From contig CALMBN010000091.1 of NCBI GenBank assembly GCA_937860195.1, positions 1 through 10,805 of the forward strand: a stretch of DNA of 10,805 nt, read 5' to 3'. Below are positions 7,846-10,805 of this stretch, in pieces. Numbering within the stretch: the stretch's first letter is position 1; each line of letters starts with the position of its first letter. Position numbers and translations under genes: made by a program. The stretch is from an uncultured Novosphingobium sp. Lineage in GTDB: Bacteria; Pseudomonadota; Alphaproteobacteria; Sphingomonadales; Sphingomonadaceae. The notes under the pieces are model-generated. The model was not told the origin of the DNA. It was given only the letters and a program-made list of their open reading frames with translations, and did no database searches.

Positions 7846-8289
7846 ATGAACTGGGTGCTTTCCATGACTTATCTTTGGCTCAAAGCCGGCCACATCATTT
7901 TCGTGATCTTCTGGATGGCCGGGCTGTTCATGCTGCCACGCTTCTTTGTCTATCATCAGGAGGCTGAGCTGGGCAGCGAGGAAAGCACGCGCTGGCTTGA
8001 GCGTGAGGCACGGCTGCTGCGGATCATCCTGTGGCCCTCATTGATTGTGGCCTGGGTGCTTGGGTTGATCCTCGCCTATGCGACAGGCGCGTTCCCGCAA
8101 GGCTGGTTTCTGGTCAAACTGGCTGCTGTGCTGGCGCTCACTGCCTACCACGTCTGGCTGGCAGGATACCATGCCGCCTTGATGCAAGGAGAGCGCAAAC
8201 TCTCTGGCAAACGGCTCAGACTGCTCAACGAGGTTCCCGGGATTGCCGCGGCTTTGATTGTGATCATGGTGGTGCTGAAGCCGTTTTGA
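7846..8289 (+). CDS. hemJ: Protoporphyrinogen IX oxidase, HemJ type
   Basis: A 147-residue inner-membrane protein that oxidises protoporphyrinogen IX to protoporphyrin IX, late in heme synthesis. It replaces the HemG or HemY enzymes in most alphaproteobacteria. Four hydrophobic segments are visible, at residues ~9-33, ~58-80, ~87-105 and ~127-145. Conserved blocks are KAGHIIFVIFWMAGLFMLPR with the family His (His15), FFVYHQEAE and the C-terminal LNEVPGIAAALIVIMVVLKP. The ATG at 7846 follows a GGCGGA purine-rich site. A second ATG at 7864 would remove six residues and is also plausible. It lies 15 bp after hemE and is almost certainly co-transcribed, so two heme steps sit together. Confidence 0.94.
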   Translation: MNWVLSMTYLWLKAGHIIFVIFWMAGLFMLPRFFVYHQEAELGSEESTRWLEREARLLRIILWPSLIVAWVLGLILAYATGAFPQGWFLVKLAAVLALTAYHVWLAGYHAALMQGERKLSGKRLRLLNEVPGIAAALIVIMVVLKPF

Positions 8290-8315
8290 TTGACGTTAGG
8301 CACTGCAACTCCTAT

Positions 8316-8347
8316 CTGTGCGGGTGACCGGCAAGGCCAGCGCACAG
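8316..8347 (+). terminator. Possible hairpin between hemJ and rho
   Basis: CTGTGCG at 8316-8322 pairs exactly with CGCACAG at 8341-8347 across an 18-base GC-rich loop. It has no U-run, so it is not a classical terminator. It may form part of the rho leader, which in other bacteria is the site where Rho limits its own synthesis. The rest of the 139-bp gap shows no gene. Confidence 0.25.
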
Positions 8348-8428
8348 GTGCGCGGCGCGATCTGCTTTCCCCAAGCCCTCTGATTGTCCGGCCAGTCTCA
8401 GATTTGAATTCACGGAACGACAGCCAAA

Positions 8429-9703
8429 ATGCATCTTAAAGAACTCAAGAAAAAGACCTCCGCCGAGCTGGTCGAAATGGCCGAAGAGCTGGGAGTTGAA
8501 GGCGCCTCGACGATGCGCCGCCAGGACATCATGTTCGGCATTCTCAAGGAGCTGGCCGAGGACGGCGAGACAATCCTGGGGATTGGCACGATCGAAGTCC
8601 TGTCCGACGGATTCGGTTTTCTGCGCAGTCCCGAGGCCAATTACCTCGCCGGTCCAGACGACATCTATGTCTCGCCCAATCAGGTCCGCAAATGGGGCCT
8701 GCGCACTGGCGACACGGTTGAAGGTGAGGTTCGCGCGCCCAAGGATGGCGAGCGCTATTTCGCGATCGTCAAGCTGATCAGCGTCAATTTCGACGATCCC
8801 GAAGCAGTCCGCCACCGCGTCAACTTCGACAACCTGACCCCGCTTTATCCGGACGAAAAGCTCAGCCTCGATACGCTTGATCCGACCGTCAAGGACAAGT
8901 CGGCGCGGGTGATCGACATCATTTCACCGCAGGGCAAGGGCCAGCGTGCGCTGATCGTCGCGCCGCCGCGGACCGGCAAGACCGTTCTGCTGCAGAACAT
9001 CGCCAAGGCGATTACAGACAACCATCCCGAGGTGTTCCTGATCGTCCTGCTGGTTGACGAACGCCCCGAAGAAGTCACGGACATGAAACGCAATATCGTC
9101 AACGGCGACGTGTTTGCGAGCAGCTTGGACAACGACGTCGAAAGCCATGTGCGACTCTCGCAGCTCGTCGTTGCCCGATGCCAACGCCTAACCGAAATGG
9201 GTAAAGACACTTTCATGTTGATGGACTCGATCACGCGATTGGCGCGTGCTTTTAATAAGTGGGTCGGCAACACAGGTCGCACGATGAGTGGCGGTGTGGA
9301 TATCAAGGCGATGGATATTCCGAAAAAGCTGTTTGCCACGGCCCGGGCCTTCGAGGAAGGTGGATCCCTGACGATCGTCGGAACGGCCCTCATCGACACC
9401 GGAAGCCGCATGGACGAACTCATTTTTCAGGAGTTCAAAGGAACCGGCAACATGGAGTTGGTACTCGATCGAAAACTGGCCGACCGACGCGTCTGGCCGG
9501 CGATTGACATTGAACAATCGGGAACACGACGCGAAGAAAAGTTATTGACTGCTCAAACGCTTCGCGCAACGACCATGCTGCGGCGAACGCTTTCCTCCAT
9601 GCACCATGTCGACGCCATGGAACAACTCACCAGCAAGCTCGGGAAATTCAAGACGAACTCGGAGTTTGTCAACCTGATCCAAGGTGCCAACGGCGACGGT
9701 TAG
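8429..9703 (+). CDS. rho: Transcription termination factor Rho, chimeric reading frame
   Basis: A 424-residue open frame for the hexameric RNA helicase that ends transcription. Residues 1-219 are typical of alphaproteobacteria: [20 protein letters not shown] (Rho N-terminal helix bundle), then a cold-shock RNA-binding domain with [20 protein letters not shown], then Walker A APPRTGKT (178-185) and Walker [14 protein letters not shown] (207-219, Asp210, Glu211). From residue ~220 the protein changes type. [40 protein letters not shown] and [20 protein letters not shown] are, from memory, planctomycete-like. Alphaproteobacterial Rho would instead read close to [20 protein letters not shown] there. 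Codon use changes at the same point, with CGA, CTA, TTG and ACA appearing. The frame is intact and all catalytic motifs are present, but I think it joins halves from two organisms, most likely by misassembly. Upstream context (hemE-hemJ-rho) is alphaproteobacterial. Confidence 0.9.
9041..9100. other. Probable junction between two genomes inside rho
   Basis: The change of sequence type falls in or just after the codons for [14 protein letters not shown], nearly invariant across bacterial Rho proteins and therefore a likely shared k-mer for an assembler. Left of it the protein, codon use and gene order are sphingomonad-like. Right of it the Rho sequence, intergenic repeats and the next gene are not. 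The exact base cannot be fixed by eye. Confidence 0.65.
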
Positions 9704-9793
9704 TAACAATTCAAATTTACTTCGGCATTTGTCGCTTGCTTGTAGGCAGGTAGTAATTTTACCACGGAGCCACGGAGGACACGAAGAAGATAA

Positions 9794-9835
9794 GTGGTAT
9801 GTGGTATGTGGTTAGTGGTTAGTGGTTAGTGGCTG
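9794..9835 (+). repeat. Heptamer tandem repeat GTGGTAT/GTGGTTA
   Basis: Six consecutive 7-base units: GTGGTAT twice (9794-9807), GTGGTTA three times (9808-9828) and a degenerate GTGGCTG (9829-9835). It starts at the inner edge of the left inverted-repeat arm. Such short heptamer arrays can expand and contract by slippage. Confidence 0.9.
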
Positions 9836-9904
9836 GGGTGATTTCCGTTATTACCGCGCAGAGCCTGCCCCTCGCGGAAGCGGGAATTGACTGCATTGGA
9901 ATTC

Positions 9905-9925
9905 ACTTACGACCTACGACTTACA
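9905..9925. repeat. Second heptamer array ACTTACG/ACCTACG/ACTTACA
   Basis: Three 7-base units lie just inside the right inverted-repeat arm. Their reverse complement (TGTAAGT, CGTAGGT, CGTAAGT) has the same period as the left array, and the two occupy mirror positions inside the arms. The element as a whole is therefore roughly symmetrical. Confidence 0.75.
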
Positions 9926-10023
9926 CCCTTATCTTCTCAGTGTCCTCCGTGGCTCTGTGGTTTATCTGAAATGAGGAAGTTATTTTTGAGCCCTGCCTTA
10001 GCAGGCACGGCGGAAAACCCGAA

Positions 10024-10048
10024 CGCCCGGGGGTTGCAGCCCCAGGCG
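10024..10048. repeat. GC-rich hairpin
   Basis: CGCCCGGGGG at 10024-10033 pairs with GCCCCAGGCG at 10039-10048 at 8 of 10 positions around the loop TTGCA. It lies just past the stop of the minus-strand gene that follows. It could act as that gene's terminator or be one more dispersed palindrome. Confidence 0.5.
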
Positions 10049-10078
10049 CTGCGTGGTGTCCCTGCGACAAGTCAGGCG

Positions 10079-10465
10079 TTACCGGCAATCGCGTTTTTCG
10101 AGGTCTTCCTTGGCCAGTTTCCAAGCGGCGGTGGCATACTTTTTATCGAGCCGTGCCAAGCGGCAGCGGCGCACATCGAGCGTCCGCCTGCCGCCGCCGG
10201 GGTGTTTTACGAGGACATAGGGCAAGCAAACCGACTTCACTCGCAGCGGCACCCCGGCCGACTCCGGTAGGCAGCACAGTCGCACGAGTTCCTCCGGGGG
10301 CTGTGTGGTGGCGTCGTTGCACCAGAAGAACGAAGGGACTTCGTACACGATGTGCAGCAGCGACACGAAATCCCCCAGGCGGATTTCTTCCGGGGCCAGG
10401 GGCTTAGCCAAAGAGCCCCCGCGGTCGGATTTGCGTCGTTCGAGTTGAGTTGGAGAGTTTCCCAT
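10079..10465 (-). CDS. Hypothetical protein, planctomycete-type
   Basis: A 128-residue protein of unknown function. From the ATG at 10465 it has a short polar N-terminus, MGNSPTQLERRKSDRGGSLA. A conserved-looking core follows: PEEIRLGDFVSLLHIVYEVP, SFFWCNDATTQPPEELVRL, GVPLRVKSVCLPYVLVK, then RRTLDVRRCRLARLDKKYA and a Lys-rich end. The core, with its Trp/Cys pair and LDVRRCRLARL motif, resembles small uncharacterised proteins I associate with Planctomycetota. It has no signal peptide, membrane segment or catalytic motif that I recognise. An open frame continues 36 codons upstream, but that part is low-complexity Ser/Pro and repeat-like. No Shine-Dalgarno sequence precedes the ATG, which is common in planctomycetes. 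Its pattern of alternating hydrophobic strands supports a real coding sequence. Confidence 0.65.
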   Translation of the reverse strand: MGNSPTQLERRKSDRGGSLAKPLAPEEIRLGDFVSLLHIVYEVPSFFWCNDATTQPPEELVRLCCLPESAGVPLRVKSVCLPYVLVKHPGGGRRTLDVRRCRLARLDKKYATAAWKLAKEDLEKRDCR

Positions 10466-10669
10466 GGGGGAGAGGACAGCCGCAGAGTGGGAAAGGTTCA
10501 CTTGCCCATGGGCCTGTGGAGGGGACAGGATTGAGGATGCAGGGGTGAGGGAAAGAAATACAGAGTCCCACAAGGTCCCTGGCTGCGGGCCATCGCGTCT
10601 CTGCGCCTCCGCGACTCTGCGGTGAAAACGGAATTCAATTCCTCAGTGCTTTGTCACAGCTTGATTTTA
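10466..10669. other. Intergenic DNA with a degenerate CTGCG-type repeat
   Basis: No gene is seen. At about 10598-10625 the sequence TCTCTGCGCCTCCGCGACTC followed by TGCGGTGA resembles the GCAGAGGCGCAGAG class of dispersed intergenic repeats, read on the other strand. It is of the same general kind as the CCACGGAG arms after rho. CCCATGGG palindromes occur near 10461 and 10504. Confidence 0.4.
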
Positions 10670-10748
10670 GGGTGGCACTGTCCAGCTTGCTGGCAGTGCG
10701 AAGCGTGTTCCAGGAGTCCACTGCCGGACAAGCGGGACAGTGGCACCC
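10670..10748. repeat. Long imperfect hairpin, GGGTGGCACTGTCC type
   Basis: The left arm at 10670-10698 pairs with the right arm at 10719-10748 around a 20-base loop. It begins GGGTGGCACTGTCC and ends GGCAGTG; the right arm begins CACTGCCGGACAAGC and ends GTGGCACCC. Only a few mismatches and one length difference break the stem. This GGCACTG/CAGTGCC palindrome type is one I associate with repeated intergenic elements in planctomycetes. It may be a transcript end or a mobile palindrome. Confidence 0.75.
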
Positions 10749-10782
10749 GTAACCGTTCACGCCCCGGGGAGTGAACGGTTAC
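10749..10782. repeat. Perfect 12-bp stem hairpin GTAACCGTTCAC
   Basis: GTAACCGTTCAC at 10749-10760 is followed by the loop GCCCCGGGGA and its exact complement GTGAACGGTTAC at 10771-10782. It abuts the preceding long hairpin with no gap, so the two form a tandem stem-loop block. There is no U-run after it on either strand. Confidence 0.85.
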
Positions 10783-10805
10783 GATGCAACGTGTCATCCC
10801 AAAAA

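What the first reader, a model, noticed from the sequence alone, without database searches (positions are those of the whole stretch)
8429..9703. Rho reading frame is half alphaproteobacterial, half planctomycete-like
Seen: up to residue ~219 ([13 protein letters not shown]) the protein reads like sphingomonad Rho. From residue ~220 it reads [20 protein letters not shown] and [20 protein letters not shown], and codon use shifts (CGA, CTA, TTG, ACA). Known: alphaproteobacterial Rho has a [16 protein letters not shown]-type segment at this place. Inference: two genomes were joined at the invariant Walker B codons, most likely during metagenome assembly. A true recombinant Rho would be remarkable, because the two halves must cooperate in a hexamer.
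Basis: partly seen in the sequence, partly recalled or inferred. Interest (0 to 1): 0.8.

Follow-up and report, generated by a model that had tools for sequence, protein, structure and literature searches.

The report
Assembly chimera inside rho gene
The odd two-part Rho gene is most likely a metagenome assembly error that glued the first half of a sphingomonad gene to the second half of a planctomycete gene; proteins identical to each part exist unjoined, and the missing sphingomonad ending lies on another contig of the same assembly.

Summary
Rho residues 1-219 are identical to an intact 418-aa Novosphingobium-type Rho (P0122). Residues 210-424 are identical to a 375-aa Pirellulales-type Rho (P0001). 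Both of these are of one type along their whole length. If they stand for the parents, the join lies within window 9054-9085, at most 32 shared bases.

The decisive fact is in the window's own assembly. Contig C139 begins inside rho and carries the genuine sphingomonad C-terminus, 111 of 111 residues identical to P0122. After it comes a P-loop gene that also follows rho in 10 of 17 relatives. Residues 220-307 of the genuine Rho were not found in the assembly.

Among 194 other genomes of the genus, no C-half match is better than E 8.0e-63, 52% identity. None of 271 listed proteins is 85% or more identical in both halves. The 9704-10805 tail is also planctomycete-like.

So this is a short-repeat mis-join, not a recombinant Rho. 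Codon usage is weak support. Raw reads were not available.

The parts
8429..9055 (+). 5' part of a genuine sphingomonad (Novosphingobium-type) rho, residues 1-209
   Evidence: 209/209 identical to P0122; 82% DNA identity to G023 over 7852-9078; preceded by a hemJ-like gene (name recalled), as in 16 of 17 relatives
9054..9085 (+). join zone: longest stretch that both parents can share (at most 32 nt), with the codons of [10 protein letters not shown] at 9056-9085
   Evidence: P0001 has Ile where the window has Val-209 (GTT), so base 9053 must differ; P0122 has Gln where the window has Lys-220 (AAA), so base 9086 must differ (alignments, window DNA). DNA of the two parents not seen.
9086..9703 (+). 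3' part of a Pirellulales-type planctomycete rho, residues 220-424 and stop
   Evidence: 205/205 identical to P0001; best genome contigs match Bythopirellula polymerisocia, 95% over 195 aa; 80% DNA identity to it over 613 nt
9704..10805 (.). tail of the contig, mostly without convincing genes, planctomycete-like
   Evidence: 12 of 15 planctomycete genomes searched have a match, best 334 nt at 71%, E 4.5e-42; at the same depth 0 of 14 relatives of the window's genome have one; in a shallower search 4 of 194 other genus genomes match, with pieces of 25-46 nt
10079..10573 (-). ORF of 164 aa with a relative in Bythopirellula polymerisocia, no Pfam family
   Evidence: 87/124 identical to L118; no Pfam hit at E 0.001

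Best explanation
The reading frame is an assembly chimera. The assembler walked along a sphingomonad contig (hemE-like, hemJ-like, rho; first two names recalled), reached a run of at most 32 bases coding [10 protein letters not shown] that a co-occurring Pirellulales-type planctomycete shares, and left along the planctomycete rho. The frame was kept because both genes code the same ten residues there. The real end of the sphingomonad rho became the start of another contig, C139. Shown: the two exact identities, the orphaned true C-terminus in the same assembly, and its gene order in relatives. Inferred: that a short shared word in the assembly graph was the cause, and that P0122 and P0001 stand for the two parents.
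For: Residues 1-219 = P0122 and 210-424 = P0001, both exact. P0122 is sphingomonad along its length (191-198 of 209 and 191-198 of 199 identical to four named Novosphingobium Rho in its two parts) and P0001 planctomycete along its length (127-145 of 160 and 183-194 of 205 to five proteins from the planctomycete list). C139 starts inside rho and encodes P0122 residues 308-418 exactly. In 18 loci of 17 related genomes (18 of the 23 relatives' loci held at that point) rho has the sphingomonad C-terminus, 16 in full and 2 cut at the locus end after 92 residues. The P-loop gene of C139 follows in 10 of 17 genomes and the hemJ-like gene of the window precedes in 16 of 17. In 194 other genomes of the genus no C-half match is better than E 8.0e-63, 52% identity, against 8.0e-133 for the window. 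None of 271 proteins is at least 85% identical in both halves. The best identity in the full-length search list was 76%. The genome is 359 contigs, 71% complete.
Against: No raw reads or coverage were available. The DNA of the two parents was not seen, so the shared word is bounded (at most 32 nt) but not measured. The genuine middle piece, residues 220-307, was not found in the assembly. The overall codon score does not separate the halves. The P-loop gene was not found in 7 of 17 relatives, two of which are cut inside rho. It is not shown that 9704-10805 adjoins rho in the planctomycete: in Bythopirellula polymerisocia the match lies at G219:C1:64348-64681, and of 80 planctomycete rho loci only two gave short matches (27 and 34 nt) beyond rho.
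Confidence: 0.98

Rival explanations
1. A true recombinant: a sphingomonad strain acquired the 3' half of a planctomycete rho by homologous recombination at the conserved [10 protein letters not shown] codons, and the hybrid Rho works.
For: The frame is intact without stops and Rho_N, Rho_RNA_bind and the ATPase domain are all recognised. Three database Rho proteins (P0241-P0243) combine an N-part 63-71% identical to this one with a C-part 74-82% identical, so the combination is not structurally absurd.
Against: The same assembly holds the unrecombined sphingomonad 3' end with a downstream gene found there in 10 of 17 relatives. No return to sphingomonad sequence was seen in the last 1.1 kb of the contig. 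P0001 is 100% identical over the C-part, so the event would have to be very recent (inference). No comparable C-half was found in 194 other genus genomes (best 52%).
Confidence: 0.01
2. The window's organism carries two rho genes, one normal and one hybrid or acquired.
For: Two rho segments exist in the assembly.
Against: They are complementary, not redundant: the N-part was found once and the genuine C-part once, at a contig start. The hemJ-like gene before the window rho and the P-loop gene after the C139 piece belong to one locus in relatives.
Confidence: 0.01

Closest known systems
Sphingomonad (Novosphingobium-type) Rho, P0122, 418 aa
   Same: Residues 1-219 identical, which include the Rho_N and RNA-binding domains
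   Different: From residue 220 it continues QRSVKGEV...[16 protein letters not shown] and ends as C139 does
Pirellulales-type planctomycete Rho: P0001 (375 aa) and Bythopirellula polymerisocia locus L014
   Same: Residues 210-424 identical to P0001; 95% to L014 over 195 aa
   Different: The N-part of P0001 matches only 69/209 of the window's and has no Rho_N hit in Pfam; P0001 may be cut at its N-end
Inter-species chimeric contigs of metagenome assemblies
   Same: Join inside a conserved run shared by two genomes; complementary remainder of one gene on another contig
   Different: Nothing notable

Membership tests
Assembly chimera | Two parts match two different taxa at near identity with a sharp switch | tested here: met
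   219 and 215 residues identical to P0122 and P0001, overlapping by 10; each of these is of one type along its length
Assembly chimera | The displaced remainder of a parent gene exists elsewhere in the same assembly | tested here: met
   C139:1-333 = P0122 residues 308-418, 100%; residues 220-307 not found
Assembly chimera | Switch lies in a stretch shared by both parents | tested here: met
   [10 protein letters not shown] in both proteins; at most 32 nt by the codon argument; parental DNA not seen
Assembly chimera | No reads span the join; coverage step | not testable with these tools
   no reads held
Natural recombinant Rho | The hybrid gene is found independently in another genome | tested here: not met
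   No C-half match better than E 8.0e-63 (52%) in 194 other genus genomes, identities of weaker matches not all listed; 0 of 271 listed proteins at 85% or more in both halves, lists capped at 120 per search
Natural recombinant Rho | Host sequence resumes after the acquired tract | tested here: inconclusive
   The tail 9704-10805 is planctomycete-like and has no match in 14 relatives, but the contig ends at 10805, so a longer tract is not excluded

The most novel reading that the evidence does not exclude
A minority strain of this sphingomonad really carries a functional Rho hexamer with a planctomycete motor half, while the C139 fragment comes from the unrecombined majority strain.
Probability: 0.01. 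Interest if true: 0.7.

Novelty: not a real feature. Interest (0 to 1): 0.04.

Why it matters
It is an ordinary artefact, useful only as a warning. A clean, in-frame, domain-complete protein in a genome bin of low reported contamination (1.26%) can still be an inter-phylum mis-join. The 424-aa protein and the last 1.7 kb of the contig should not be credited to the sphingomonad.

Tried and rejected
Codon-usage log-odds did not separate the two halves; the planctomycete C-halves used (76 of the 80 loci, those with the motif in frame) themselves range from GC3 0.38 to 0.99. It is reported as uninformative. Tetranucleotide profiles were not computed. GC falls to 0.494 at 9501-10000, which is suggestive only.

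The first control for the tail in the genus scored only 2 candidates per genome, fewer than the planctomycete search (up to 29). I therefore repeated it in 14 relatives (9 of the same genus, 5 of the order) at the same depth: 0 of 14 match.

P0241-P0243 were examined as possible independent hybrids because they score above the sphingomonad parents against the full-length chimera. They are 63-71% and 74-82% identical in the two parts, so they are neither this chimera nor close kin of either parent. Their organisms are unnamed and were not pursued.

Papers: a search on inter-species chimeric contigs found 0. One on Rho in planctomycetes found 10, of which I saw the listing of 9. One on chimeric contigs and de Bruijn graphs found 11, listing of 10 seen, and I read found passages of two (PMC11443906; PMC6843070).

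Full report
What was claimed. The rho frame at 8429-9703 was said to be sphingomonad up to about residue 219 and planctomycete-like after it, most likely by mis-assembly.

The observation. The frame exists, 424 aa, plus strand, ATG start. I searched the two halves separately against 5.8 billion proteins; each search scored about 8000 candidates and listed the best 120. Where the N-part list (residues 1-215) names a taxon it is Novosphingobium, Sphingomonadales or Pseudomonadota. Where the C-part list (228-424) names one it is Bythopirellula, Lacipirellulaceae, Pirellulales or another planctomycete. P0122 (418 aa) is identical over residues 1-219 and 96/205 identical over 220-424. P0001 (375 aa) is identical over 210-424 and 69/209 over 1-209. 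Each is of one type along its own length: P0122 is 191-198/209 and 191-198/199 identical to four named Novosphingobium Rho before and after [10 protein letters not shown], and P0001 is 127-145/160 and 183-194/205 identical to five proteins of the planctomycete list. All 80 record titles carry planctomycete names (six say Candidatus Kuenenia; that these names are planctomycete is recalled).

Where the join is. [10 protein letters not shown] is coded at 9056-9085. P0001 has Ile where the window has Val (GTT at 9053-9055), so the planctomycete parent must differ at 9053. P0122 has Gln where the window has Lys (AAA at 9086-9088), so the sphingomonad parent must differ at 9086. If these two stand for the parents the shared run is at most 32 bases, 9054-9085. 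By recalled E. coli Rho numbering this is the stretch with the catalytic glutamate. The Walker B aspartate would be residue 266, window 9224.

The missing half. The window is contig C91 of a 2.31-Mb, 359-contig assembly, 71.3% complete. Contig C139 of the same assembly starts inside rho: its first 333 bases encode 111 residues, identical to P0122 308-418. A search of the assembly with P0122 finds only C91, C139 and a weak match on C238 (27% identity; taken to be an ATP synthase subunit, my guess). Residues 220-307 of the genuine Rho were not found.

Gene order. I compared 18 loci of 17 related genomes (18 of the 23 relatives' loci held) with four proteins. All 18 loci have the sphingomonad C-terminus, 16 in full and 2 cut at the locus end after 92 residues. 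The hemJ-like gene that precedes rho in the window is found in 16 of 17 genomes. The P-loop gene that follows rho on C139 is found in 10 of 17, in three of them (L103-L105) about 0.5 kb further on; the seven without a hit include the two cut loci. The names hemJ and P-loop are recalled from sequence. So C91 and C139 are the two sides of one locus.

Controls. The planctomycete-type C-half was sought in 195 genomes of the genus. Outside the window's own genome 193 of 194 match, none better than E 8.0e-63 (52% identity), against 8.0e-133 for the window. I read these as ordinary sphingomonad C-halves and weaker relatives; identities of the weakest matches are not listed. Of the 271 proteins gathered, 146 are at least 85% identical in residues 1-209 (highest C identity among them 52%) and 118 at least 85% in 220-424 (highest N identity 54%); none is in both sets.

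The tail. 9704-10805 was searched in the genomes of 15 of the 80 planctomycete loci: 12 match, best 334 nt at 71% in the Bythopirellula polymerisocia genome, and a repeat around 10645-10752 makes up most of the 31 matches in one genome, that of L016. At the same depth 0 of 14 relatives of the window's genome match. A shallower search of the genus (2 candidates scored per genome) gave 4 of 194 others, with pieces of 25-46 nt. ORF 10079-10573 (-) is 87/124 identical to L118 of Bythopirellula polymerisocia. The tail is planctomycete-like. In that genome the match lies away from any rho that I saw, so a second join between 9704 and 10805 is not excluded.

Codon use. CGA is 0 of 13 Arg codons in residues 1-219 and 7 of 17 in 220-424 (p 0.010), against 8 of 103 in seven window genes (p 0.0011). 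A whole-codon score does not separate the parts.

Mechanism. [quoted passage not shown] PMC6843070 (passages read) notes that assembled contigs may be chimeric. A run of up to 32 bases is in the range of small assembler words (recalled). The join stays in frame because both parents code the same ten residues.

Verdict. An assembly artefact, confidence 0.98. No evidence for a recombinant Rho.

Noticed in passing
P0241, P0242, P0243: Unnamed database Rho proteins with a conventional N-part (63-71% to this sphingomonad Rho) and a C-part 74-82% identical to the planctomycete-type one; they may be natural Rho of another phylum in which the two types meet.
   Followed up: partly
G017:C102:2942-3079: A related genome has a second, 63%-identical Rho piece (query residues 170-215) in a 195-aa frame besides its normal rho; possibly contamination or another mis-join.
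   Followed up: no
window 9761-9817 and 9904-9961; 10748-10783: Inverted repeats in the planctomycete-like tail: two arms of about 57 nt, 83% complementary, and a 36-nt near-palindrome (94%) close to the contig end.
   Followed up: no
window 10645-10752; genome G221 of L016: A stretch that makes up most of 31 matches in one planctomycete genome, so probably a dispersed repeat.
   Followed up: no
P0121: A 458-aa 'partial' Rho from a Pseudomonadota MAG with part of its N-terminal region duplicated in tandem; looks like another assembly error.
   Followed up: no
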